Shown here one piece after another: positions 19,963 to 58,271 of a DNA stretch of 64,000 nt. Position 1 is the stretch's first letter; each line of letters starts with the position of its first letter. Source of the stretch: Spizellomyces punctatus DAOM BR117 (Eukaryota; Chytridiomycota; Chytridiomycetes; Spizellomycetales; Spizellomycetaceae); assembly GCF_000182565.1 (NCBI RefSeq), contig NW_015971545.1:818208-882207 (forward strand), read 5' to 3'. The position numbers were made by a program, and so were the translations under genes. The notes beneath the pieces are model-generated. The model was not told the origin of the DNA and made no database searches. It saw only the letters and a list, made by a program, of their open reading frames with translations.

Positions 19963-20888
19963 GATGATGAATTGGGAGCGCATGTAAATTATGTGCGTAT
20001 CACAATCTTGAGAACAGCACCCTCATGCAATCATCACCACAGTATTTCGAATTGGCTTGTCAAGCAATACTGTCCTGCGGAATAAGTGCAGAAATTTCGA
20101 TCGGGTTGGTATCGATTCTGGATGCATTGATGGGTTTCAATGAGCTTCAGACGATACGATAGGCAGCAACACGGGTTATTTCTTTTATGACTGAAGAAAG
20201 GTTTGGTGAACGTCCTTGAGTTCTTTATAGGTAAATGAATATGATAGAGTATTGACCACCTCAGCTGGATCTTTATGAAAGGGTTATCCGACTTTATGCA
20301 GTCGAGGATGTGATTCCATGTCATATTAAGTTGGTCAATCGTAAGCCTCGCTGCAGTAGAAAATATGGAATATTCCCATTGCCTCTGTCATCAAGAGTTC
20401 TTTTGAAATGCTGTTGCCTATTATTTGGGTATATTAGCCATTTAATTTTACACGGCAGCATTCCAGATCCGATTACAAACCAGAGGGCAGGTACAGTAGC
20501 TTAAATACACCGACAAGGTCCTCTGGAGGGAAGGATTTAGGAGCAGAGACGAAATTCCTGGATATTGAGCGGCGATCATCTTCAGTCCCCAGACGAGACA
20601 GTCATCTAACAAAGCACATCTGGCAGTAGTTGGTATCGAACACTGCCAATCCAACTCGAGCCACGTTGCTTGTGATTTCAATCGGTTGAATAGGTTAAAC
20701 AATTTGATCATCGGCGGCTTTCACCGTCACGTCACGCGTTTGGTTGAACAGCAACCGACAAAAAAGTTGAGGTTGAGGATTTTGGGTTTCCGACATGGGT
20801 ATTCTAGTTGTTGTAATTAGGATAGCTACATAATTTTTATTGAGAGAGAATAGACGATTTGTGACCAATTTACCTGGTTCATTGTTCA
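19963..20888. other. Intergenic
   Basis: Upstream of the hydrolase gene. Minus-strand frames (20034-20324, 20448-20711, 20695-20919) are short and lack protein features. Nothing else seen. Confidence 0.45.
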
Positions 20889-23029
20889 ATGGGTACACTT
20901 CTTCAGCTGCTTGAACCACTGTCGGCTGCAGCGTCCTCCGCCTTTCAAACGGTTTCTCATGCCGCAGAGTCTCTCACGAAGCCTGCGGTCGATCAGTCAA
21001 ACGATGGTCCACTACCTACCACCCCTAGCAATATCGCAACCTCTATCCCACAGCGAAGTTCGTCACTTCCTCCGGCGGACGATGACGACAGTTCCGACAC
21101 TGAGCAGTATGATATCGCAGCAAAGGTTCCCAGTTTAGGCGTCGGGTGGAATTCGATTTGGCAGTTTCTGGGTGGTTCAGAGGAATTGAGCGATGACGAG
21201 TGTCCAGAGGAAGTGGAGCTAAAGGATCTGAGTAATGAAAGAGGAGACCCAACTCAAGCCTCTAAAACAGAGACAAACAAAGATGAGATTATTGCCGTAC
21301 AGCGAGCCGCCGATGCTGCAGCTCAAGCTCCAAGTGGATGGGCTGCGTTCGGATTCAATTTAAACATACCCATGCCACCCTTCCTTGATACCAGATCCTT
21401 TCCCGCACCGCCCGACGAGGTAGCACCACTACCCGGCCTCACACCAGCTTCAAATACCGCACCCGAACAAGGTACCGTCCGGTCAACGACACCAGATGGG
21501 GACGCTACCACAGCAGCCAGCGCCTGGACTAAGGCTTGGGCATCTGTCACCGGATCCGCAACGCGCAACTTGCGACCCTGCGGGCATCGACATCCGTTTC
21601 ATTTCTTGGAGGGGGACCTTGTCCTGATGGGCGGCATGTATGGTTCCTTCCTGGAAGATCGATCTACCGGCCGGAGGGAATGGCTTTCGATGGATGCAGT
21701 GTTGAATTGGAATACCCCAGATTTGAGACTCCCCCTAGGCGGAGATGAGGAGGACGACAGGCTTGTGCCAAGCGGGTGAGTTCCTTTCATTGACTTATAT
21801 CTTAATATATCCTTTTCTACGAGTTTCTTTTGACACCATTCTTTTTTAAAAATTCAGTATTTTCGACCGTCTAGGTCCAATCAATGTTTGCGCCGATCTC
21901 GTGCGTGAATTTGTTTCCTGGGAAAAATGCAGCTCAGGAGCCTTTCGCTTCCACCCTTTCGCCTACGATTGGCGCAAATCCCCACACCATGCTTCAAAGT
22001 CCCTTGAGACCTTCCTTAGTAACATTTATGAACGCAATAACCACCAAAAAATCCTCCTTGTTGCGCACTCCATGGGCGGCCTCGTGGCTCTTTCAGTGAT
22101 CAATAGACGACCAGAGCTGTTTCGTGGTGTTGTGTTTGTTGGAACGCCTTTTGGAAGTGTTCCGCTCATTATATGGGCTTTAAGACGTGGCGCACCCTTT
22201 ATGTTGAACCGAACGTTGATGTCAGCTGGACTGCACTTTGGAGCGCGGACTTCTTTTGTATTTTTGCCGACCGATGGCAAAGGTTTGGTGGATGATAAAG
22301 AAGAGGATATTTTGATTGATTTTTATAATGCCGACGAGTAGGTCTTGTGTGCTTGAATTGCAGCAATCCAACCTCGCCTAATTAGACTTCCAATATAGGT
22401 GGCTCAACTACCGCCTCTCCCAGGTTTTCCATACTGCAAAAACGCAGGAGGATCTCCAAAGCTTCCACACATATCTCAAACAGACTCTTCACAGCGCCAA
22501 AACCTTCCGAACGTCCCTCTCCCACAATCCCGATCAGTCATATCCCCCATTCGCCACGGTAACCTCTACAAAATTCCCTACACCAACTCGTATTCGCTCC
22601 TCTGTTCGTAAGGTTCAAACACCGTTAGGAATAAAGCGCGAAATTAAACTCATGTGGCCATGTCGCTTTCTGCCCGGGGATGGGATTGTTAGCGGGGAAG
22701 ATATGCGTATGCCATTAGGATTTACGTTTTCGGAAGTCAGAAGTTTAGTAGGACATTGGGGCCTCCTAAATGATGTAGCGGCAATAAGGAAGGCCTTAAA
22801 GAACATTTTGGAGGAAGAGACGAAACGGAGTAAGCCTGAGAGTGCGGCTGACAATGAGCAGATACCGACAACAAACGAAACTCATGATGAGAATGCGCAC
22901 GATATACAGCGGATAGACTGCAGTGAGGAACCTAAAAATGAAATGGATAAGCTTGACATCAATGACAGAATGGAAATTAAGAACGGAGATGAACCACAAA
23001 TGGAGCAGACCGGATCATACACAACATAG
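20889..23029 (+). CDS. Alpha/beta hydrolase, LCAT/PGAP1-like lipase
   Basis: Three exons (20889-21775, 21858-22337, 22399-23029); 665 residues. A ~220-residue disordered, acidic N-terminus precedes the hydrolase core. The core opens with HPFHFLEGDLVLMGGMYG, continues with FHPFAYDWRKSP (a YDWR motif typical of LCAT-type acyltransferases and lipases), and has the nucleophile elbow AHSMGG (Ser as nucleophile) followed by VFVGTPFGS. Later acid and histidine residues are not assigned with confidence. A disordered Glu/Asp-rich tail ends the protein. Likely a lipase or phospholipid acyl hydrolase; no signal peptide, so probably cytosolic or membrane-associated. Substrate unknown. Confidence 0.7.
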
Positions 23030-39544: not shown

Positions 39545-42522
39545 ATGGCTGGACGCAACAGAAAGGCCCAAACACCAAAGCGTCATCACAAGCGGAGGAC
39601 TGGATCGCCAAGACGGCAGCCTCATGTTGATGAGACGGTTGCCCTTATTCAATCACAGAGTCGTGATGCTGATACGCGCGTGAGATCTAGAAGAAGGAGC
39701 TTCATGGATGGTCCTGTTGGACGCAAGTTTTTGGAGGTACATTGCGTTGATGTTTGCGCTAGAAAGGGCATAGTCTCGGAAGACAAAGAAAAAGATTCCT
39801 GATCTACGGGTTTTCGTCTAGTATCGTCGAGTTTTCTTTTTTGCGGGTACCTTCCTTGGAGTGATATCTACCCTTTTGGCAGCTGCAACTTTTCGACCAG
39901 CACTGAAACCGATAATGCCCATGCATCGAATGTCAGAGTTATTTTCTGGTGCTTTGGGAGATGTGGATCTGTCCGAGTTCCTTCCCGAGATTCCCGGAAT
40001 TAGTTCATATGATCTCTTGGGAAACCTGACGTCGATGTTTCAGATTCCATCACTTTTTGGAGGCACAAAGGTGGGATCGCCTGCTACCGAGTATGAGCAG
40101 TTTCTGCCTGGAGCCCGACTAGCTGGAGAAGGGCTCGCCGCAAAGGTAGGATTCACTTAATCGGCTTGCTGTCACCTCGAATGTAGATACAGATGATTTT
40201 GCATTGGCAATTCAGCACCCTGTCATCCTTATCCCTGGCATTGTGTCCACAGGACTTGAAGTGTGGAATATCCCTGTCTCGCCTAAAACTGACAGTCCTC
40301 TCGACACAAAGAATACGGGAGAGGCACAAGATCAAGCTGGTGGCCGTGCCAAAAGAAAGCCCCAGGCGAAATCAAGTGAATCAAAATCTGCACCTGCCAA
40401 GCAAACCACGGATGAAGCGGCCGCTGAGGAGATCATTGCAATGAACCGCGCTTGTGGGCAGAAATATTTTCGAAAGAGAATATGGGGAACCACAGATCAT
40501 TTCAAAGCTCTACTGTTGAACAATGCGTGCTGGGTATATCATATGATGCTAGATGAGACGACAGGGCTAGATCCGCCAGGTGTCAAATTGAGGGCAGCCC
40601 AGGGTCTTGATGCGGCGGACTATCTATTTCCTGGGTATATATTTCTTTTAGCTTTCAGTTATCTCATTTAAGAATGTTTGCTTATCTGACACCAAACGTT
40701 AGGTACTGGGTCTGGGCTAAACTTATTTCCAACCTTGGAGCTCTCGGATACGACAACAACAATAGTACGCATTCATTCCCACAAGAGTAAGCTGCATTTA
40801 TGTCATCTCACAGTTGATTTGCATCCTGTAGTGCACCTGGCAGCCTACGACTGGCGGCTCAGCTTTGCTAACCTCGAAAAACGCGATCTCTACTTTACCA
40901 AACTGAAAAATACGATTGAAATCTCGTACTTGCATGCAGGCGGGGGACCCGATGCCCGATCTGTTGTCGTGACCCACTCCATGGGCTCAACTGTTTTTAT
41001 GTATTTTATGAGCTGGATCCGCAGTGATACCGGTGCCGGCGCTGGAGAACAGTGGATTCAAAAGTATTTGAAGGATTGGGTGAACATTGCGGGGACCTTG
41101 TTGGGTGTACCAAAGGTAAGACAATGATTGGAAGAGTGCATAGTAGTCAAAGGACTCAAGCTCATTTTGTAAGGCGCTGCCAACGATGTTGTCTGGTGTG
41201 TTCCCAAGCAGTCTCCGTGACCATTATAACATAACATGACATCATCCTGTTTCACAGGAGAAATGAAGGACACTGCAATGTTGAACGGGCTTCAAGCCTT
41301 TGTCCTCGAAAACTACCTCATGACGAGAGCGCAACGTGCAAGGCTGTTCCGCTCATGGTATACACTCTGCAACCAGAGCTCATATTTCCTGCATAAACTC
41401 ACTATTTAAACCATCAGGGGAGGGCTTGCATCTATGCTACCATACGGAGGTGAAACCATCTGGGGAAGAGTAGGCCAGCCCGCTCCAGACGAAGGCGAAA
41501 CTGAGAACCCTAGTTTTGGCGAATTTCTCACATTCTATCCCGCAAAGAAAACAGTGGAAGACTCCCAGAAAACTGGAAACAGGTCCACAAAAAAGACAAT
41601 GACCCTTTCAGCTGACACCGCAGAAGAGTTTATATTGGACGTCGCCAATCGTCCATATTGGGCGGCCAACCATAAGCGTTATGTCGCCACGTCCAAGCGC
41701 CAGTTGTTGGAGGCAAAAGACGATAATACGGCGTGGACCAATCCACTTTTAACTCCTCTGCCGCATTTCTCACCAGATTTCAAGATTTATTGTCTGTACG
41801 GAACGGGCCGTAAAAGCGAACGCAAATACTTTTACAACGTTGAACCCAAAACAAACAAAAGCAGCAAAAATGATGAAAGCAAAAAGAATGGCGATAACGG
41901 CAAATATACACCAGACAACCGTGATGACGAAGAAGAAGCGAACGAAGAACTGGACTTCCATGTTGACACAACATATAGCCAAGAAGAAGCGAATATCTAT
42001 AGTGGGGTCCAGCTGACGGATGGGTTAGTTTCCCAGGTTGCATGATCTTGTTCAATATAGTATTAACCGCATTGATGACAGCGATGGCACTGTTCCCCTC
42101 ATTTCTCTTGGAGTATGTATCCCGTCGCTGCATTGATATCATACGTTTCCTAACATTGTTTTGTTGAATGTGAATAGTACATGTGCGCCAAAGGGTGGAA
42201 GCACAAACGATACAACCCGGCTCAAATACCCGTCATTACACGAGAGTTTCGTGATAAGCCAGCCGGCGCTTTTAGTCCACGAGGTGGACCCGGGAGTGCA
42301 GATCATGTTGATAGTATGTTCCACCGGCTTTCGCTATTTGATTTTCTCAAAAGTAACTGAATCTCAATGATTTTTTATTGGTATGCAGTCCTTGGCAATT
42401 ATGATATGACGGAAGATATTCTGCGAATAGTTGCGGGGAAAGTTGAAGGATTAGAAGATTCTATATTTAGTGAGATAGAGGAGATAGCAAAAAGGGTAGA
42501 ACTGCCGAATGGACTCGATTAG
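39545..42522 (+). CDS. LRO1: Phospholipid:diacylglycerol acyltransferase (Lro1 type)
   Basis: Eleven exons: 39545-39736, 39822-40145, 40216-40634, 40703-40764, 40832-41115, 41174-41195, 41258-41357, 41418-42023, 42082-42112, 42178-42313, 42389-42522; 769 residues. A basic cytosolic N-terminus is followed by one transmembrane helix (FFFAGTFLGVISTLLAAATF) and the lumenal LCAT-like domain. Family marks: HPVILIPGIVSTGLEVW, YDWRLS, nucleophile elbow HSMGS (Ser), the acidic residue in DGDGTVPL, and the histidine in DHVD near the C-terminus; the triad is complete. It transfers an acyl group from a phospholipid to diacylglycerol to make triacylglycerol in the ER. Exons 6 (22 nt) and 9 (31 nt) are very small. 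A Lys/Asn/Glu-rich insert (about residues 575-630) is unlike yeast Lro1. Confidence 0.92.
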
Positions 42523-42727
42523 CAACGCAGGCCGAAATTGATTGATCATTGGAGAAGCTTGATTTTGGTGAGAGCTCACGGTTTTGACACTGCGGCGTAT
42601 TGGACGGGGACAGGTAATTTCATTATAATCTTCATGGGTACTACTACAACATATTACAAACCGCCAATTGCACATTACTACATACATGGATTAACTAAGG
42701 ATACCAACTACATAATCGAGAGCCTAC

Positions 42728-43750
42728 TCAGCAATGCATTGCGCGCTTTACTTTTCTAAAAAACCGTCTTAGTCCCTTCTTTTGCGGTTTCGCATTTGTC
42801 GAGCTGTCATCACTGCTCAATGTAGGCGAATGCGTCAGGACCTTGACTTTGGTGTTGCCCATGGGTCTTGGACCAGCGGGTTTGCGAGTAGCTTTTGAAG
42901 TGATTTGCGGCTTTGGAGCAATTTCGGAAGATGATGGAACGTCCAAAGATGGAGCCGGAGCAGGTGTCAGTATGGGAGCCGCCACCGGTACTTCGACAAC
43001 ACCTTCATTGTACAGTTCGGATGTCAATCTTTTCCGGCGTTCAAGCGAGCTGTACGCGGAATCCAGCTGAGGATCGGTGGCATCTGGTTTCAATGTCGTT
43101 TCGGGTGGGATTTCCAGCCTGGGTATCTCGAGTTCGGGTGTCACTGACGCATTATTGGGCGCCAGATATTGTAGCAGCTTCTCTTCCTCCCATTTACTCC
43201 ACGCTGAACCAGTTTCAACTGTCATAGAACTATTGTCTAAAGACCCCTGAAGTCTTGTAATTGGCGGTCTTTTGATTGTGGGGGCAAACCGAGCATCATC
43301 TTTGAATGCTTGCACGTCGTTCAATAGCCCTTCTAGCATCATAATGGAGCGGCGAGTATGGAGGTCCTGATCAGGGACCAGAAAGGAAGATCTATCAAGT
43401 GTTCTATTTGCATAGCTGTCGACCAGACCGATTTCATCAAACGTTTCTTCTTCAATGTCTTCCTCGTCGAATGAAATGTCCGACCATATAGAGGAAGTAG
43501 AGTTGGTTCGGGTAAGAGCCGGGTGGTGGTAGACGTTCTTGCGCGGTGTCTTGTCGGGTGTGGGTTTGTCGTCCTCTTGCTGGTCTTTGTTTTGCTTCGT
43601 TTGAGTCGGACGACGAAACTTCCTCCGGGTACTCTTCCTCCTCATTCTCCTTGCAGAGGTAACGGAGGATGCTCTCCGAACGACAAGGTATCTATGTGTG
43701 GTGGCAGCTTGCGAAGGAGCCGACATTCTTATCGAGGAATTGCTGTCCAT
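42728..43750 (-). CDS. Unrecognised disordered protein with basic C-terminal tail
   Basis: A single exon of 340 residues, starting MDSNSSIRMSAPS. The N-terminus is Arg/Lys-rich (RRMRRKSTRRKFRRP), an acidic patch (ISFDEEDIEEETFDE) follows, and the middle is Pro/Thr/Ser-rich. A short helical part (RRSIMMLEGLLNDVQAFKDD) may be structured. The protein ends GLRRFFRKVKRAMHC, an amphipathic basic helix with Cys as the last residue, a plausible membrane-binding tail. Length and codon use are protein-like and it lies tail-to-tail with the acyltransferase gene. A Met at 43807 would add 19 residues. No family recognised. Confidence 0.6.
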   Translation of the reverse strand: MDSNSSIRMSAPSQAATTHRYLVVRRASSVTSARRMRRKSTRRKFRRPTQTKQNKDQQEDDKPTPDKTPRKNVYHHPALTRTNSTSSIWSDISFDEEDIEEETFDEIGLVDSYANRTLDRSSFLVPDQDLHTRRSIMMLEGLLNDVQAFKDDARFAPTIKRPPITRLQGSLDNSSMTVETGSAWSKWEEEKLLQYLAPNNASVTPELEIPRLEIPPETTLKPDATDPQLDSAYSSLERRKRLTSELYNEGVVEVPVAAPILTPAPAPSLDVPSSSEIAPKPQITSKATRKPAGPRPMGNTKVKVLTHSPTLSSDDSSTNAKPQKKGLRRFFRKVKRAMHC

Positions 43751-44239: not shown

Positions 44240-47200
44240 ATGAAACAGTCATCTTCGTCGCTCCGCACGTCGGACCTGAACGGAATGCAAAAGGTTGAAT
44301 GACATGTTCCCGGGGCATTGACACGACGTCCATTATGGCCACGTAATTAACACACCTTTAGCACCGACGTATCACCATTGAGCGGCTGGAAAAGTATCTG
44401 CAAAATGGTCAATTTTCCGATGTCAATCTTCATGCCACATTGGTGAAAGAGCGGAATCAAGAGGCTGTCAACTTGCAAGTGTTCTCTGTACCCAATGGAC
44501 GACGGATGTAAGTATTTGTCGGCGAGCGGTATAATAAAGTTGAATATCATGTCCCAAATCTTTGCATGTGAAGCATTTCTTGTCAGTAAATATGTTCTGA
44601 TGGTACCATTTTTATCAATTTCAGTCCTTTTGCTGACGCGATCCAAGGCTCATACCAGCCCACGCAAGTTGGGGAGAGCTTTGGTCCAAGTATGTTTGCA
44701 CTATATTTTGCCAGAAATAAAGTAATTTGCAAACTGATTGACCGATACCAATAAAACAATACGTAGCCTGGTCGACTCATTGGTTTAAGGTCACAATTAC
44801 CATCCCTGAATCGTATGCTGGGCAGGCGGTCGTTTTCATTTTCGATCCCAGCTGTGAAGCATTAGTATGGTCGACCAAGGGTCAGCTTTTGATTGGAATT
44901 ACGGGTGATAAAAATGTGGATCGGCATGTTGACTATAGGTTGACAAAATCTGCAAAAGGCGGCGAGGTAACCGTTCCATTCGGTGGTTTGTTTATATTTA
45001 CCTGCTCAAGCGCGTCTCACCGTTTTATTGCTTGCTGTAGCAATTTGAGCTCTATGTGGAAGTTGCTTGCAATGGAATGTTTGGAGCGGGAATTGGTATG
45101 TCGGAGATCTTTGAAAGAAGGGTGTGGCATGCGCAACCATTATCACGGCGCTGTTTGTCCGCGACCCTTACGTACGCTCACCACGCCCCCTACTTTCATT
45201 GCCACTTTCGTTGTAGGCGGGAATGGCTCCATTAATCCACCAGAGGAAGACAGGTAGCTCCCATCCTTGGCGGCTGTGCGCAGAACATTGCTCACTCAAT
45301 CATGGTTTTCGAAAGATACTACCGCCTAACCACGGCTGAGATCATTGTCCCGAACACAGACGCATTTGATCTTTTGTGGGACATGGAGGTCTTGTTAGGC
45401 ATGGTCAAGGTAATGAAACTGGATAGATGTCGACCTCGTCGAAAAATTTATTAATAAGATTTTCGTCCTGCAAGGAACTTCCGGAAAACACCCAAGCTTC
45501 CTGTGACGCTCTTTACACGGCAAACCAGATTGTTAACACTGTCTTCCACGACGACTTATCGTGCGTATAACTCAGTCGTTTCTCTATAAGACGACAACCT
45601 AACGCATTCTCGTTAGCTCCATTAAAAAGGCCAAAGAGATTTCCCGTGAGTTTTTTGAAAAGCGATCCCACACTGGTTATTCGCAGCATGTCGTAACGGC
45701 TATTGGCAATTGGTAAATATGGCATTTCATTTCTGCAAGTACTTTGGTAATTGGCTGACAAGCTATTATCTGTCTCAGCCATATTGACACCGGTGAGAAA
45801 CGACGATTGATGGAGGTCTTAGTGACGACTGACTAAAACTATGTCCCGCCGATATTAGCATGGCTCTGGCCTTATGATGAGACTAAACGGAAGGTATGCG
45901 AGCAAACGGAATCCACCGCACGCAAGATCAAATGTGATTAAATTATGCTTTCACCCAGGCTGCTCGTTCTTGGTCGACACAGGTATTTAGGTAATTCGTC
46001 ATTGGATCATGGGAGTTATTATTAAATTCATTTTACAGTGCCAGTGAGGATGCTGCAATTCATTTTTAGCTATGCCTTTGTTGTGATCTGACTTCGATAC
46101 CAGATTAATGGAGAATTATCCAGAGTACGTTTTCACTGCATCGGTAAGCACAGCAATAAGGAACGCAGGCTTAATAAGTATTATGCTCATCGCGCTTCCT
46201 TTTCCTCAACCGATTCCGTCAACAGCAAGCGCAGCAGTTTGAATGGACGGAACAGCTCTATCCTGAGCTATTCGAACGCATCAAGGAGCACGCGAAAACT
46301 GGAAATTTTATTCCAATTGGAGGTAAAGAGATCGCTATTTCTGCGTACTTGTTTGTGCTGGACTCATATCAGCGTACCTGTAGGGGTATGTCTCAAAGTG
46401 TACGCATCAGTATCGTGTCCATTGATTGAACTAAGTCGCGCAGACCTGGGTCGAAATGGATTGTAACCTACCCTCAGGAGAAGCATTCTGTCGACAGTTT
46501 TTGTACGGACAGCGGTACTTTGAAGAAAAGTTCGGGGAAAGGTGTACTGTTTTTTGGTTGCCGGATACCTTTGGATATGTACGTACGCGCCATTTGAACA
46601 TATCTATCTCTCCGCAATTTCTCACAATTTTGATAGTCAGCACAGGTTGGTCTGGTTTAGCTGTGTACATCATGGCCCAACACATTGATTGATGTTGCCG
46701 TTGTCAGTTGCCGCAAATCATTCATGAAGCAGGTGCGTTTTTTGCAAAATCTCTGTTAGATATGACTTGCTCAAGTGCTTCTCCTGCCAGGGTTGAAATA
46801 TTTCTTTACACAAAAGCTGTCCTGGAACAATATCAACAAGGTACAACGTTAGTTTGCCCTTTTGCACTGGAGCGGACTGAAATTGACATTCTAGCTGTCT
46901 GTTTAGTTCCCACACACAACCTTCATGTGGACTGGGTGAGTATATCGCTTCACAACATACGATGGGATGCTAATATTCCTCTCATCCAAACTGCAGACTT
47001 GATGGCACTTCGGTACGGCCCTTTTAATCTCGGCCTCGATCACAAGAACAAGAATTCTAATTTTGAATCGTCACATTTCGTAGGTCCTGACCCACTTTTC
47101 ACCCGCGGATACTTACACTGCGCAAGCAAGTGTTCGCGACGTTGTATTTGCGTGAGTTCTTCAAAATAACTTGATTCCAACCGTGAAATACGTTCTAAAC

Positions 47201-50200
47201 AACTGGGGTAGTGTACACAACAACAAGGATAAACCCTACAGTAACCAATCACTTTTGGTCTACGGTAACGGTGACGGCGGCGGTAAGAATGCGCACCATA
47301 TTGGCTTGTGGCGATAAAAATGACTGATGTTATGCCAATAGGTGGTCCCCTGATCCCAATGATTGAACGGCTACGTCGCATGCAGAATGTCGAAGGGTTA
47401 CCGGCCACGGTCAAATTCGGATCGCCAAACACTTTTTATGAAGAATTGGAGCAAACCAGTCGCGATCTTGTCAGCTGGAAGGGCGAACTGGTTTGTGAAA
47501 GTAGATCTTGCCAACTTGTGTGAACAAACACTGATGACGGATCCCGCTTTATCTGACAGTACTTTGAACTCCACCGGGGAACCGTAAGTCGCCATGAACT
47601 ACATTCATCTATTTGTGCCAATGCTTAAAAAAAAGGCATGGCACTTCAACAGTATACATCTCAAGCTCTTACGAAAAAGTATAACCGTCAAACCGAGCTT
47701 CTCCTTCGTGATATCGAAATTCTGTCTTCCTTGTGTGTGGCCACTGGAGTGTCCGACTTCAAGTATGTTATCCTTTGCATTTTGCCAACAGGATTGGCAA
47801 ACCTGATTTTCTCATCTTTACCTTGCTTTTCCTATAGATATCCAAAGACAGAACTGGATCGTTTATGGAAACTAGTTTTGCTGTAAGTATATACTAGGAT
47901 ATCTCTTTTACTGATCTTTCATAGATCCTCATCGTGCTAATTTTATTATGTTAGCAATCAATTCCATGATGTGCTGGTGAGTAACCAAAGATATATATAC
48001 GCCGTAGCGTATTATTGATATCTCTCGATCCGTTTAGCCGGGATCATCAATTGAAATCGTATATCACGACGCTCTCAAGGTAATATAGTGATATGGTGTG
48101 CCAGTTGCCAACATCTATTCACCAAGTGATCATTTTTCTTAGTTTTATGCTGATGTTGTTGAGAGCGGCACCAAGCTGCGAAATGAAGCATTGGAAGCTT
48201 TGATTGGACGGCAGAGGACTAGCACAAAGGGACCTGCAAGTATGTTTCGGTGTTGATCTTCCAAACGGGCAGCGAAATATACTCATCTTACCAATTGGCA
48301 ATCCGCGTCTCTAGCTGTTTTCAATCCCACTTCTTGGACTCGTCCAAGGCAAGTCATAGAACTCGACACGGAGACTGCCAATGTGGATGTGTCAATATTG
48401 CAACAGACTTCGGCTGATGGACGTAAAGCTCTGGTGATATTGGAAGAAGTCCCGGCATACGCTCTCAAAACCGTTCAAATGGGTTACAAGCCCAGCGACT
48501 TTGTCCCTGTCACCGGTATATCTACTGTGGTGAAATGTATTTGCATGAAATCCATCCTGAATCCCTTGTCCCGACAGTTGACACCTCATCCGGTGAGAAG
48601 ACGATTGTTGAAAATGCTTTCATCAAGGTCGTCTTCAACCAACACGGACGCATAGAAAGTTTATACGACAAAAAGGAAGGGTAATGTTTTAAATGTCAAA
48701 ATGTAAATTGGTGGGCAGCCTTTATCTCAACCTTGATAAAATAGGCGTGAAACGATTGCTCCACAATATTTGGCGAACGTCTTCAAACTGTATGAAGATA
48801 TTCCGCTTTATTGGGATGCCTGGGATGTGAGTTGACGTTTCATATGCCGTCAGATGTTCTTTTGCTGAGAGCCATTCTTATCGAAGGTGGAGGTCTATCA
48901 CCTCGAGAAAGGCGGGGAAGTCGCTCCTGGGACACTCTCTGTTGCCGAGACAGGTCCATTACGCGCTGTCCTCAAAGTATCACAGCCCATCACCAAGCAA
49001 AGCAAATTGGTGCAGACCATCATAGTGACGGCAACAAGTTCAATGGTCGAGTTTGATACCTGGGTGGATTGGCATGAAAACCGAAGGATATTGGTAAAAT
49101 TACATATTGAGAGATAGTACCGCTGATGTTATCTGAACCGCGTTGTTGGCGATGACAGAAAGTCGAGTTCCCTGTCGATATTGCTAACGACTTTGCAACC
49201 TACGAGACGCAATTTGGATTCATCAGGCGGCCAACTCATTACAACAACAGTTGGTGGGTCCCCATGGAGATATCCTACAATTCATTATCCGAGGTCGTCT
49301 CTCAATAGTTCATTGTTTGGGCTAGGGACATGGCGAGGTTCGAGGTATGCGGACACAAGTTTGTGGATTACTCTGAACACGGCTATGGTGTTACGCTCTT
49401 GAATGACTGGTGCGTCATGAAGATTTGGACGAAATCCATCGTGTGATGATGTGGTAATTGTGGAGTTGCTTTGTAGCAAGTATGGTTTTGCGGTTCATGG
49501 AAATGTAATCCGTATGTCGTTACTTCGATCTCCAAAGGTATGTGAGCTATTACTAAAAGCGCTTATCGTTAAATGCGAGCTGCTTGTAACGTTGCACAAC
49601 ATTCAGGCACCTGATTTGCACTGCGACATGGGTATGACCATTTCGTCGTTGAGTTGCTCTCGCAGTTATTCACATGCAAGACTACATAGGCGAACACAGA
49701 TTCCGTTACGCACTGTACCCTCATCGCGGCGGCTTCAATGAGAGTAACGTGGTTCAAGCGGGTTATGAGTTCAATGTGCCGTTATTGATCAGGTCTGTCT
49801 CGTTTCTGGTTTCTGGTGGCCATTATGTTTTCAGCTGCTCATTTCCCTTTTGCGCTTAGCTCAACATTCTCAGCTTCCATCGAAACCCAATTCTTCACTG
49901 TCGATACTTCGAATGTTGTCTTGGACACCATCAAACAGGCGGAAGATGCTAAAGACAAAGACATCGTTCTGAGGCTGTATGAAGCCTATGGCGGGCGGGG
50001 ACGAGCTCGCGTCAAGAGGTGAGAAATATATATCTCCGCCGTATGTGTTGGAATTTACTGATATGCCAGTTGAGCAGCACCTTGCCCATCAAAAAGGCAT
50101 TCTTGTGTAATATTTTGGAAGATGTCACTGAAGAGGTTAAGAGGGACGATGAAGGTGCTCTTCTGTTAGAGTACACTCCTTTCAAGGTGTTAAGTATCAG

Positions 50201-50216
50201 AATTGCCGTCGATTGA
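44240..50216 (+). CDS. AMS1: Vacuolar-type GH38 alpha-mannosidase, 42 exons
   Basis: By phase and homology I place 42 exons and 41 introns, 1048 residues. Marks: [13 protein letters not shown] near the start; Zn site [12 protein letters not shown] (exons 10-11); [14 protein letters not shown] with the Asp expected as nucleophile (exon 17); FWLPDTFGY joined to SAQLPQI; GNGDGGGGP; Zn-ligand His in NQFHDVLPGSS (exons 29-30); and C-terminal LPHRGG-like YPHRGGFNE. All catalytic motifs are intact, so this is a working gene despite its broken look. Yeast Ams1 enters the vacuole by the Cvt/autophagy route and trims free oligosaccharides; no signal peptide is seen here either. Micro-exons: 46384-46385 (2 nt), 46039-46043 (5 nt), 46637-46645 (9 nt), 45779-45792 (14 nt), 46997-47012 (16 nt). 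Confidence 0.92.
46384..46385 (+). other. Two-nucleotide micro-exon of the mannosidase gene
   Basis: Exon 15 ends in phase 1 (GGA-G) at 46322 and exon 17 starts in phase 0 (ACC TGG GTC) at 46444. Direct joining gives a stop within eight codons. Inside the 121-nt gap stands CTGTAG-GG-GTATGT: an acceptor, GG, and a strong donor. This splits the gap into introns of 61 and 58 nt, the normal size here, and restores Gly-Gly-Thr-Trp, the sequence conserved in the family. Confidence 0.7.
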
Positions 50217-53900: not shown

Positions 53901-56900
53901 ATGTCTGTTCAGCAGTACGGCAAGAAATTTCCAATTCTCCTTCGGACACCTTCGCCACGAGGCCAGGTGGAGTTGTTGGAAACAATAGGAAAGGGCAATT
54001 ATGGTTATGTATATAAGGTAACTTTTTTGCAGACGCACCACGGCGGAAGGCCTGAATGAGATAAATTGGACTTTGACGCTTGCTGGGCTTGACATTCATC
54101 GCGTTGGTGAACCCAAAGTGACCTGGTGCATGGGGAGGAGATAGATAGCACTTCCATTTTGGCGTAGTATTAGCCGTAATTATGCAGCTTGGATTAAAAT
54201 TCTGCGGTTTTGAAGACATGTTCTTATGTTGCGTGTTATGGTGCTTACAGTCTTGTGTCTTTGTTAGGGCCGATTACTGGCAACCGGCGAGATTTCCGCT
54301 GTAAAGGTCGTTTTTCTTAAGGAAGATGAGCTTCGAGAAACGCTTTTAGAGATGGAGATTCTGAAGGCATGCGAACACCCAAATGTCACAAAATATATGG
54401 GATGCTTTCTAAAAGGGTTGGATTTATGGGTGCGTCGACGACTCTCAACCTTTTTGAGATTGGACGTGGACTAATCGTCGCATTGATTAGATTTGTATGG
54501 AGTTTTGTGGAGGTGGAGCACTTGACTCTTTATATCGCGGTACGTGCAAGGGGTCGCCCATATGCATACTGGCACGTGCACCCTAAAGATGTGTCATGTG
54601 TGTGCAGCCCTGAGGAAACCGCTGTCCGAAGACCAAATTGCATCTATTCTTTACGAATCCGTGACAGTACGTACCTTTTTCTGCTCAACCAACAAGCCTA
54701 TATGTGCACACTTTGACAATTTTCTCTAGGGATTGGACTATCTGCATAACCAAGTGGCTCTAATTCATCGAGATATCAAGGCAGGCAACGTACTTCTAAC
54801 CGAGAACGGGGAATGCAAGCTCGGTATGAAGATAGCGCGTTTGGAACTGTCTCAAAACTTTGCTAATCCTGATAATTATGATATGTAGCGGATTTCGGGG
54901 TGTCCGCCAAGTTGAACAATGTTGGTGGCCGGGCACGAACATTTATCGGAACTCCGTAAGTGGACTTGTTGCACTGACCATGTAAGTTACAGGCAAAGGA
55001 CATTTACATCTATCATCCACTAGATATTGGATGGCTCCGGAAGTCATTATGACAGACCCTGAGAGTGCAACACATAATACCGCGTCATACGATGCAAAGG
55101 CAGACATTTGGTCCATTGGCATTACGGCCATTGAAATTGCAGAGAAAAATCCGCCACTCTCCGATATCCATCCTATGCGAGCACTGTACTTAATTCCGAA
55201 TTCAGATCTTGGATTGGCAAAACCTAAAAATTGGTCAAAAACATTTCAAGATTTTATTGCAGCTTGTCTGATAAAAGACCCGGTGAAACGTCCATCAGCA
55301 GCACAGCTTTTGCAGCACCCGTTTTTGGCAAAGGCTCGAGGCCTTCCACGACAAAAGATTCTGAGTGACCTGGTAGCGAAGGCTAGAATAGCACGGGAAA
55401 AGCGTAAGGCCGGGTATGATGTTGAGGATGAGGAAGAAGAAGAGGAGAAAAAGGAAGAAGTCCCATCGAAGATTGTGGCTGAGACAATCAAGCAAGCGAA
55501 ACAGGCTAAGCAAACTGCTCAGCAGGTGCAGCAACATCAAATGCAAGTTGCAGCCGTTGCGGTAAGTTAAAAATCTTCCGAAATTCTTCTATTCTCAAAG
55601 ACACGTCTTGATATTTGCTGGATCAAATTAGTCACCGGTACCAACACCCTCAACTGTACTTCCCATCGCCGATTTCCCAAAGTTTGTGGATAGCATATCG
55701 AATCCTGCGGCCCGTATATTGAAACCTATGGCTATCGGAGGTCTAATGCGAATTGAGATTTTGACAGCGGACATGCTTGACAAGCAATACGTGCTTGTTG
55801 GTGGAGAGAAAGGATTGTTCTTCATTGATTTATCTCAACCCCAGGAAAACCAGGAGCTTGTCCCCTTGATACGTAATACCCGATTCAAACAAATCGAAGT
55901 ACTGGAGGATTACGGCGTTATGGTTGCCTTGTCCGGAAAGCATGATCACATCAGGCAATACAAGCTCCCATCTCTCCGAAAGTTGATCAGATACCTTCAA
56001 GGTACAAGCCCGCAGCAGCTCGCCAAAATGAACATGGCTTCTGTTGAGTCTCTCAGCAGCGCTGCTGGTAGACAACCGACAAATACCTCACAAACGCCGT
56101 CTTCACCCGCCGTGTCGGATGCTGATGAGGACATGTACCGCGCACTTCATGCAAACGTGATTGAGGATGAGGCTGTGTTAGTAACGAGATGGGCAAGCGA
56201 CTATATCAAAATCCCAGGGACTAAGGACTCGAAGGCCTTCAAAGTACAGCAAACTGAGACGTCGATTTTCATGGCGGTCTTGTTCCGGCAAGATATTATA
56301 ATGTTTGAATGGGCAAAAGAGCCATATCTGAAATTCATGAAGCTGAAAGCTTTCTGGTTGCCAGAAGGGCCTAAATTTATGCAACTACTGCATGATGGAC
56401 TGGTCGTACGGGAAATCTTTTTAGGCTACTCTTCTGAAGCAAACTTGGTGAATGTGGACGATAGTCGCGTCAAAGAAATCGATGTGCAGCGCGATTTCCG
56501 AGAAAAGGCCGGAAAGGGTAAAGCTCGATGGCAGACTTTTGTTCAGATTCCATTTTCGGAGGCAAAACGGAATGAGCTTAGGACGCTCACTCGGAATGCA
56601 GCCGTTACTGTAAATCGGAAACTCGCTGCGGTTGCGGGTGCATCAACCATGCGAGCTGGAAGCGCAAGCGCGGGAATGCGTGTGGATCGGTATTTCCTGG
56701 GGACTTATCATCGACTGACACGAGTCGTGGACCTCTTCGGGCAGCCCATGATGGGCAGTGGCGTTGGCGGATGGAAAGACGGTGTAATGTGGAGGGAAAC
56801 GCCTGCAGAGCTTGTTCTACGACCGGTCGATTGGGTCATAGGAGTTGGGCGAAGTGGTGTGGAAGTAGTGGATTGGCGAACCGCTAAATTACTCCAGACC

Positions 56901-58271
56901 TTGACCGTAGATGGGGCAACGGGATCTGGCGATATTGGCATGAGGCTATTAACTGGCCGCGACAGAGGCCTGTTTGTGGTGATAGAGCGACGGAAGAGAG
57001 GGTGCGTCCTTTATCATCTGAAAGAGAAGGAGCGACCAAAGAATGAAAGTGATGCTGGGGGGAGAGAGGGTGGTATGGATGGCAGTGGCCTTCGCGAACC
57101 ACCATTGAGTGGCGAGTCGCATCCTTCTTTCTCAAATCAACCTGCGGCTGCTGTTGCCAATGGTCCTACGGAGTCGATCGTTGGCCAGATGCAAGTGCTC
57201 TCCGTACAAGACACCGCTGAATTGGCCAATGGCGGTGGTTCCCCACCTAAAGTTGCAGCGGCATCGCAACACCAACGCCTGGGAAATCAGCCCAACCTTG
57301 TGCCATCAGACAATAGAGACGCACAACACCTGCCCAAATCGCCGTCCGGCCCTGTTCCGACCGCGAAGTTACCGGAAGTGCCACAGTACGAAGCCTCTCA
57401 GCAGCCAACTGTGCATCCGATCCGAACGGTATCAAATGCGTCGTCATTATCTTCCAGTAATAGCTCTGCACCAGTATCTCCGCGTCCTGGTGGAAGTCCA
57501 GCAGGATCGCCGGCTCAGCAACGACGAACAGCTGGGGAACACCCCCCTCAACATCAGCAGCATCAACATGCGTATCAGCAGCAACATCCGCACCGACCAA
57601 TGACACCCCAAGAGCAGCAATACTATGCCCAACAACAGGCAATGGCTGCAGATCCAAGATATGCACAGTACATCGCCCAGCAGCAACAGCAGCAACAACA
57701 GTACTATGCACGGGCAGGTTCACCTGTCGACCCACGCTATGCGGCGGATCCTCGATATGCCGCGTACTATGCTCAACAACGACAGCAGCAACAATTGCTA
57801 CTACAACAACAGCACCAACAGCAACACCAACTCCACCAACATCACCAACAAGGGCCACGCCCCCCACAAGCTGGAGGACCGCCGGCGGCGGCGAATGGCG
57901 GTTCTCAACGATACCCGAATGATGTTGACACTCTCCGTAGTGCCGCATCATCAGCATACGGGTCTGCGCCAGGAGGGTACCATCCACAAGGCCATAGGCC
58001 TGCCGCTCCTGCCGGGTACGGGTACGTGCAGGGCCATCCGCAGGCTCGAACTCAACCACAGCCACAAGGGTATGATCCCCGGTACATGCACGATCCACGC
58101 TATGCGCAGCAGCAGCAGGCCATGTATGCGGCTGCACAAGGTCGTGCACCAGCACACGCCCAGCAAGCTGTTTTTGGGTATTATCCTAGGCCACCGGCGC
58201 AGGGGCGTGTGGTTGGATACGAGTATGGTGGCGACGATGCTCAGGAGAATGAAGGAGAGCGCAGACAATAG
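53901..58271 (+). CDS. Germinal-centre (Ste20-type) kinase with CNH domain
   Basis: Eight exons (53901-54017, 54268-54429, 54491-54539, 54608-54666, 54730-54823, 54889-54955, 55024-55561, 55632-58271); 1241 residues. The kinase domain starts near residue 22: Gly loop IGKGNYGYVY, lysine in ISAVKVV, HRDIKAGN, DFGVSAKL, and the Ste20 signature GTPYWMAPEV. All catalytic residues are present. An acidic/basic coiled coil rich in Glu/Lys then Gln follows (residues ~330-410). A citron-homology (CNH) domain spans about residues 420-800 (RIEILTADMLDKQYVLVGG...). The last ~370 residues are Pro/Gln/His/Tyr-rich. The layout fits the MAP4K family, which signals from small GTPases to MAP kinases or polarity. 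The first intron is 250 nt. Confidence 0.93.
57550..57860 (+). repeat. CAG/CAA/CAC-rich tract in the kinase gene
   Basis: A low-complexity run encoding Gln- and His-rich segments (e.g. AQQQQQQQQYYARAG-like stretches with repeated DPRYA motifs). It keeps the frame. Shadow frames over it on both strands are artefacts of this composition. Confidence 0.75.

What the first reader, a model, noticed from the sequence alone, without database searches (positions are those of the whole stretch)
46384..46385. Two-nucleotide micro-exon
GG between CTGTAG and GTATGT is needed to join IPIG with TWVEMD in frame. It divides a 121-nt gap into two standard-size introns and restores the conserved Gly-Gly-Thr-Trp. 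Exons this small challenge exon-definition splicing and would be among the shortest known.
Basis: partly seen in the sequence, partly recalled or inferred. Interest (0 to 1): 0.75.

Follow-up and report, generated by a model that had tools for sequence, protein, structure and literature searches.

The report
Two-nucleotide exon in a chytrid mannosidase
A gene of a soil chytrid fungus very probably contains an exon of only two letters, squeezed between two ordinary small introns, which the public gene annotation missed; such ultra-short exons are known but rare, and this one still needs to be seen in RNA.

Summary
The window is Spizellomyces punctatus DAOM BR117 (Chytridiomycota); the gene is a 42-exon Ams1-type GH38 alpha-mannosidase. 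GG at 46384-46385 lies between GT-AG introns of 61 and 58 nt, both normal sizes for this gene. Of 11 in-frame parses listed, the 2-nt-exon parse has the best splice sites and alone gives gap-free IPIGGTWVEMD. Of 118 homologs compared, 116 have exactly this length here and two lack the stretch. A spliced aligner guided by these homologs chose the 2-nt exon with 94 of 118 under bare GT-AG rules, and with 116 of 118 when splice weights from other introns were added. "Needed to join in frame" is overstated: a single 113-nt intron (46323-46435) also keeps frame, adding two residues (VAQ), and the public protein SPPG_05671 reads exactly so. Short fungal introns are probably paired by intron definition, so exon definition is not really challenged. 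Likely mechanism: two separate removals that cannot be simultaneous but could occur in either order. No transcript was examined. Precedents (1-nt exons in plants and Fusarium) make it a new member of a known kind.

The parts
44240..50216 (+). Whole coding region of the Ams1-type GH38 alpha-mannosidase: 42 exons, 41 introns; stop codon TGA at 50214-50216
   Evidence: Exon model (there cut at 50186; the last exon runs on to the stop, read from the printed tail and matching the C-terminus of P0003); Pfam PF01074 for a 74-aa piece
46226..46322 (+). Exon 15, ends ...ATT GGA G (phase 1), encoding QAQQFEW...FIPIG-G
   Evidence: the intron before it is called with 116 of 118 references
46323..46383 (+). 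Intron A, 61 nt, GTAAAG...CTGTAG
   Evidence: one match, itself, in the 24.0-Mb genome
46363..46367 (+). Candidate branch site of intron A, CTCAT, 17 nt before the intron end
   Evidence: a YTNAY motif is found in the last stretch of 36 of 41 introns against 52% of random 40-mers, so weak support
46384..46385 (+). Exon 16: the 2-nt micro-exon GG, completing the Gly codon G|GG
46386..46443 (+). Intron B, 58 nt, GTATGT...GCGCAG
   Evidence: one match, itself, in the genome (queried with the GG in front)
46422..46426 (+). Candidate branch site of intron B, TTGAT, 18 nt before the intron end
46434..46435 (+). Rival acceptor AG (ctaAG) that explains the public protein's VAQ
   Evidence: score 0.6 bits by the PWM, against 3.8 for the intron A acceptor and 1.2 for the intron B acceptor; P0003 reads [13 protein letters not shown]
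46444..46578 (+). Exon 17, ACC TGG GTC GAA ATG GAT..., encoding TWVEMD...PDTFGY
46039..46043 (+). Companion 5-nt micro-exon TGCCA (STQ-CQ-LM); less certain than the others
   Evidence: 19 of 118 references with bare rules (97 prefer the single intron 45991-46103); 116 of 118 and 78 of 118 with splice weights at intron costs 20 and 30
46637..46645 (+). Companion 9-nt micro-exon TCAGCACAG (FGY-SAQ-LPQ)
   Evidence: 110 of 118 with bare rules, 116 of 118 with weights at both costs
45779..45792 (+). Companion 14-nt micro-exon CCATATTGACACCG (GNC-HID-TAW)
   Evidence: 117 of 118 with bare rules, 118 of 118 with weights at both costs

Best explanation
GG at 46384-46385 is a constitutive 2-nt coding exon of the Ams1/GH38 alpha-mannosidase gene of Spizellomyces punctatus. 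Intron A splits a Gly codon after its first base, GG completes the codon, and intron B follows at phase 0. Mechanism (inferred): each flanking intron is recognised by intron definition as an ordinary ~60-nt unit. The acceptor AG of A and the donor of B are 2 nt apart, so the 9-nt donor footprint GGG|GTATGT overlaps the AG of A and the two cannot be engaged at once; they must be removed one after the other. The order is not fixed by sequence: bases -3 to -1 of the B donor are GGG both before A is removed (G46383, GG) and after (G46322, GG), and the A acceptor keeps GG after it in either order. Skipping the exon gives a frameshift and an early stop. Shown here: sequence, frame, splice-site quality, conservation. 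Not shown: use in RNA, and order of removal.
For:: sites and frame; of 11 in-frame parses it has the best summed splice score (18.2 bits; next, also two introns, 11.7; single intron 46323-46435 6.2) and is the only one giving gap-free IPIGGTWVEMD; 116 of 118 non-Spizellomyces homologs have exactly the model length here, the other two lack the residues before TW; first Gly 116 of 116, second Gly 91 of 116 (11 Ala, 10 Ser, 3 Asn, 1 Cys); the five alignments printed to solved alpha-mannosidases (8 such chains matched) have no gap here; the aligner picks it with 94 of 118 references (bare GT-AG) and 116 of 118 (weights from 31 other introns, two cost settings; no frameshift in this region in the weighted runs); over the first 60 of 118 references, forbidding A and B costs a median 28.1 half-bits with weights, the fallback being the single 113-nt intron in 58 of 60; invented exons of 15 nt or less elsewhere are called with at most 4 of 118 references each; the profile score drops 9.7 bits with VAQ; the sister protein P0004 is also broken here, reading exon 17 out of frame.
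Against: No transcript was examined. The public gene set was made with RNA-Seq among its inputs (PMC4991717, whole text read), and its protein fits the single intron 46323-46435. With bare GT-AG rules 22 of 118 references prefer that single intron; by the list these have Ala (11), Ser (10) or Cys (1) in place of the second Gly. With bare rules the gain over the best alternative is only a median 6.0 half-bits, the best alternative then being mostly 46355-46443 (49 of 60). The intron B acceptor is weak: only 3 of 39 other acceptors score lower. Branch-site evidence is weak. Summed splice scores favour parses with more introns; only the per-intron cost corrects for that. The weights come from introns of the same hand-built gene model.
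Confidence: 0.9

Rival explanations
1. One 113-nt intron, 46323-46435, ends at ctaAG; the protein carries [13 protein letters not shown], two residues longer. This fits the public protein SPPG_05671. It could be the true transcript or a minor isoform.
For: In frame; P0003 reads so; preferred by 22 of 118 references under bare GT-AG rules; RNA-Seq was one input of that annotation.
Against: Weak acceptor (0.6 bits) and summed score 6.2 against 18.2; TTGAT would lie about 10 nt from this acceptor (positions); 113 nt is outside the main length class; none of the 116 compared homologs that have this stretch carries an insertion; the profile score falls by 9.7 bits; chosen with 0 of 118 references once splice weights are used, returning only when A and B are forbidden. 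The same public protein reads VLLLLP in place of conserved [11 protein letters not shown] just downstream, so its introns here look like computational guesses (inference).
Confidence: 0.07
2. Assembly error: one 121-nt intron and a 2-base deletion in the assembled exon.
For: Two other introns of this gene are 117 and 121 nt; a 2-base loss would also explain the frame.
Against: Sanger assembly of roughly 11.7-fold coverage (PMC4991717); the sister species' public protein is also broken at this place, which an error in one assembly would not explain; a Gly-encoding 2-nt exon with good sites near mid-way would be a coincidence (2.4% or 0.09% of shuffles); no frameshift was called in this region in the 118 weighted runs at either cost.
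Confidence: 0.02
3. A spliceosomal twin intron (stwintron) or zero-length recursive site, with nothing of the intervening sequence kept in the mRNA.
For: Two adjoining intron-sized units between two exons, in a fungus, is the usual layout of a stwintron.
Against: Keeping nothing joins 46322 to 46444 out of frame (sequence; not among the 11 open parses); each intron has complete motifs of its own; two bases must stay for the frame.
Confidence: 0.01

Closest known systems
1-nt exon of Fusarium CYP621A P450 genes (PMC12940212; abstract, introduction and discussion read)
   Same: Fungal gene; ultra-short exon made of G, the middle base of a Gly codon of a conserved motif; found because exon phases do not join
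   Different: One nucleotide, ascomycete, P450; the abstract reports confirming transcript reads; here two nucleotides, chytrid, GH38, no RNA seen
1-nt exons of plant APC11 and VPS55 (PMC4674806 abstract and passages; PMC8831610 passages)
   Same: Ultra-short exon absent from annotations; Guo and Liu find intron definition more plausible, with the two introns removed one after another
   Different: Plants; verified by RT-PCR and RNA-seq; one nucleotide
3-nt exons of lipS in Dactylellina (one sentence in PMC5639578, passage seen)
   Same: Very small exons in an intron-rich fungal gene
   Different: Ascomycete, another gene, a codon's length
Fungal stwintrons (PMC5639578, Background section and passages read)
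   Same: Two adjoining intron units removed one after another
   Different: There an intron interrupts a splice motif of the other, nothing is kept, and as a rule the order is forced; here 2 nt are kept and either order is possible

Membership tests
Ultra-short (1-15 nt) coding micro-exon | Flanked on both sides by complete GT-AG introns of normal size for the gene | tested here: met
   61 and 58 nt; donors of A and B score above 13 and 34 of 39 others, acceptors above 16 and 3 of 39
Ultra-short (1-15 nt) coding micro-exon | Needed for the reading frame and the conserved protein sequence | tested here: met
   Only gap-free parse of 11, though not the only open one; no insertion in the 116 of 118 compared homologs that have the stretch
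Ultra-short (1-15 nt) coding micro-exon | Present in spliced RNA | not testable with these tools
   No reads held; run SRR343043 is named in the reference list of PMC6142364 (passage seen)
Ultra-short (1-15 nt) coding micro-exon | Conserved in a related species | tested here: inconclusive
   I had no DNA of relatives. The S. 'palustris' protein P0004 reads into intron A (KEIATSAYLSVLDS against [14 protein letters not shown]) and then exon 17 out of frame, as expected if the same structure defeated that annotation
Spliceosomal twin intron (stwintron) | An internal intron interrupts the donor, branch or acceptor motif of an external intron, and nothing of the complex stays in the mRNA | tested here: not met
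   Total removal is out of frame; both introns have complete motifs of their own
Ams1/GH38 alpha-mannosidase (host gene) | GH38 N-terminal domain and collinearity with known Ams1 | tested here: met
   PF01074 E 1.5e-27 for a 74-aa piece; solved Ams1 chains 7vqo and 6lz1 at E 5.8e-30 and 1.2e-26; full-length homologs over up to 100% of the model

The most novel reading that the evidence does not exclude
The 2-nt exon is a true constitutive exon that is spliced by two mutually exclusive intron-definition events in either order, and it is one of a family of ultra-short exons (2, 5, 9 and 14 nt in this one gene) hidden from annotation in early-diverging fungi. Chytrid genomes would then hold many undetected 1-5 nt exons whose loss makes conserved enzymes look broken.
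Probability: 0.4. Interest if true: 0.6.

Novelty: new member of a known kind. Interest (0 to 1): 0.45.

Why it matters
It gives an exactly placed, easily checked case of a 2-nt exon in an early-diverging fungus, with a public annotation that appears to have got it wrong in a predictable way. It offers a compact test of how two touching splice sites are used in turn under intron definition, and it warns that short insertions or lost motifs in chytrid proteins may be annotation errors around ultra-short exons.

Tried and rejected
Introner-type origin of the flanking introns: introns A and B each match only themselves in the 24.0-Mb genome (the tool skips very common words, so this is not proof of rarity). 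A processed (intronless) copy as natural cDNA evidence: a 268-nt joined query found only exons 15 and 17 in place; the 22-nt junction string is absent from the genome with up to 2 mismatches and from the window with up to 3. Hidden splitting of the two long introns (117 and 121 nt): looked at by eye only, nothing convincing. CTAAC as branch consensus: only 1 of 41 introns; the looser YTNAY (36 of 41) is too common in background (52%) to be strong evidence. Whether a neighbouring gene is equally dense: the stop-to-stop frames of 39600-42760 looked by eye like longer exons; I ran no further search on it, so the spread of such exons in this genome is untested.

Slips and limits: my first notes call the rival intron 46323-46434; the enumeration gave 46323-46435, 113 nt. 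A regular-expression census missed several homologs and was replaced by the alignment census. My hand model is uncertain at some other introns, where fewer references agree: 44294-44361 (34 of 118), 49793-49859 (19; 79 prefer 49802-49859, which also fits P0003), 50019-50074 (3; 81 prefer 50011-50069). They were among the 39 training introns but not among the 31. The homolog set is the best 120 listed of 6339 found; two Spizellomyces proteins were dropped before the 118-counts because they are the annotations under test. A paper search for '2-nt exon' and like phrases listed one paper, on HLA-F, not opened; [quoted passage not shown]

Full report
What is there. At 46384-46385 the window reads CTGTAG|GG|GTATGT. 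The surrounding gene encodes an Ams1-type GH38 alpha-mannosidase: a 74-residue piece matches PF01074 (E 1.5e-27) and solved Ams1 chains. I built a 42-exon model by hand, 44240 to the stop at 50216. The nearest protein is SPPG_05671 of Spizellomyces punctatus DAOM BR117 (P0003), identical to the model in the alignment except at a few places that different splice choices would explain, so I take the window to be that genome (24.0 Mb held). The gene is dense in introns: 41 in about 3.2 kb of coding sequence, with exons of 14, 5, 2, 9 and 16 nt among them.

Frame and alternatives. Exon 15 ends with one base of a Gly codon; exon 17 starts at ACC TGG. Two more bases are required. I listed the GT-AG parses of 46226-46578 with one intron (40-160 nt) or two (40-90 nt each) that stay open: 6 with one intron and 5 with two. 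Scored with position weights from the 39 other introns of the model, the 2-nt-exon parse leads with 18.2 bits; the next, also with two introns, has 11.7; the single intron 46323-46435 has 6.2. Only the leader gives IPIGGTWVEMD without a gap. Its introns, 61 and 58 nt, lie in the main length class (36 of 39 are 56-77 nt). Sites: A donor 5.6 bits, A acceptor 3.8, B donor 7.6, B acceptor 1.2; the last is weak, with only 3 of 39 lower. Summed scores favour parses with more introns, so the aligner tests below, which charge for each intron, matter more.

Protein evidence. The search found 6339 related proteins and listed the best 120. Leaving out the two Spizellomyces proteins, 116 of 118 have exactly the model's length over IPIGGTWVEMD, and the other two (P0058, P0119) lack the residues before TW. 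The first Gly is Gly in 116 of 116; the second is Gly in 91, Ala in 11, Ser in 10, Asn in 3 and Cys in 1. Of the 120, only the two Spizellomyces public proteins carry insertions here: VAQ (+2) in P0003 and a read-through into intron A (+18) in P0004. A profile built from the 116 homologs gives the model 1782.2 bits, the VAQ version 1772.5, and the product of skipping 544.8.

Homolog-guided spliced alignment. I wrote a protein-to-genome aligner that allows GT-AG introns of 40-150 nt, very short exons, codon gaps and frameshifts. With bare GT-AG and a fixed cost of 14 half-bits per intron, 94 of 118 references give the 2-nt exon, 22 give 46323-46435, and two give other solutions. By the list the 22 have Ala (11), Ser (10) or Cys (1) in place of the second Gly; there an extra intron costs a little more than a two-residue gap. 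With weights learned from 31 other introns called with at least 99 references (A, B and the introns around the 5-nt exon left out), 116 of 118 give the 2-nt exon at intron costs of 20 and of 30; the exceptions are P0058 and P0119. Forbidding A and B costs, over the first 60 of 118 references, a median of 28.1 half-bits with weights (minimum 0; fallback 46323-46435 in 58 of 60) and 6.0 with bare rules (minimum 0; fallback 46355-46443 in 49 of 60). As a control on invented exons, one search lists every exon of 15 nt or less from the bare runs: apart from the four recurrent ones (14, 9, 2 and 5 nt, with 117, 110, 95 and 19 references) no place is called with more than 4 of 118.

Chance. In 20,000 shuffles of the 121-nt stretch, a Gly-encoding AG-NN-GT with at least 50 nt on each side turns up in 2.4%, and with YAG and GTRNGT in 0.09%. 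The test was framed after the fact.

Why annotation may have failed. The public gene set combined several methods and RNA-Seq (PMC4991717, whole text). Its protein here fits 46323-46435; just downstream it reads VLLLLP in place of the conserved [11 protein letters not shown], which I read as skipping of the 9-nt exon and the next one; at the 5-nt exon it reads VFR where the model has CQ. In the sister species S. 'palustris' (P0004, 90% identical) the public protein reads into intron A and then reads exon 17 out of frame. I infer, without its DNA, that the same structure defeated that annotation too. One search shows one way to miss the exon: BLAST places the joined mRNA sequence with query bases 1-98 ending at 46323 and 99-234 beginning at 46443, since a G at each edge stands in for the GG, leaving an apparent TA..CA gap and no micro-exon.

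How it probably works. In Pezizomycotina splice sites are said to pair by intron definition (PMC5639578, Background), and I assume the same for this chytrid. The donor motif of B (positions -3 to +6, GGG|GTATGT) includes the last base of intron A, so both sites cannot be held at once. Either intron can go first: removing A leaves GGAGGG|GTATGT, where -3 to -1 are GGG as before; removing B leaves CTGTAG|GGACC, a complete acceptor. This is unlike a twin intron, where the order is as a rule forced and nothing is kept. Guo and Liu proposed intron definition with one-after-another removal for the Arabidopsis 1-nt exon (PMC4674806, passages). Origin is open: two normal-sized introns favour gain of one intron 2 nt from another over a cryptic exon adopted inside a longer intron, the scenario of Nelson and Syed (PMC12940212, discussion), but two long introns (117 and 121 nt) do exist in this gene. 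No copies of either flanking intron were found elsewhere in the genome.

Novelty. Exons of 1 nt are reported in Arabidopsis APC11, plant VPS55 and Fusarium CYP621A, and 3-nt exons in a Dactylellina lipase gene. The present case is a new member of that kind, in a chytrid, without RNA proof so far. Confidence in the 2-nt exon 0.9; interest 0.45.

Noticed in passing
46039-46043: A 5-nt exon TGCCA (STQ-CQ-LM) is likely; the public protein SPPG_05671 reads STQVFRLM, as from 45991-46103, one residue longer than the model, whose length 115 of the 120 aligned proteins share.
   Followed up: partly
46637-46645 and 46708-46732: The 9-nt exon TCAGCACAG and the 25-nt exon after it encode conserved [11 protein letters not shown]; the public protein reads VLLLLP instead.
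   Followed up: partly
44240-50216: The mannosidase gene holds 41 introns in about 3.2 kb of coding sequence, while elsewhere in the window there are long open frames (for example 879 codons at 55632-58268).
   Followed up: no
44508-44624 and 45096-45216: Two introns of 117 and 121 nt, about twice the usual size; no hidden micro-exon or twin-intron motif was seen by eye.
   Followed up: partly
49793-49859 and 50019-50074: Intron borders of my model that few references support; the aligner mostly prefers 49802-49859 and 50011-50069.
   Followed up: no
20865-23026 and 39822-42700: Two separate gene stretches that look by eye like LCAT/PDAT-type acyltransferases (AYDWR in both); the name is recalled, no family search was run.
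   Followed up: no
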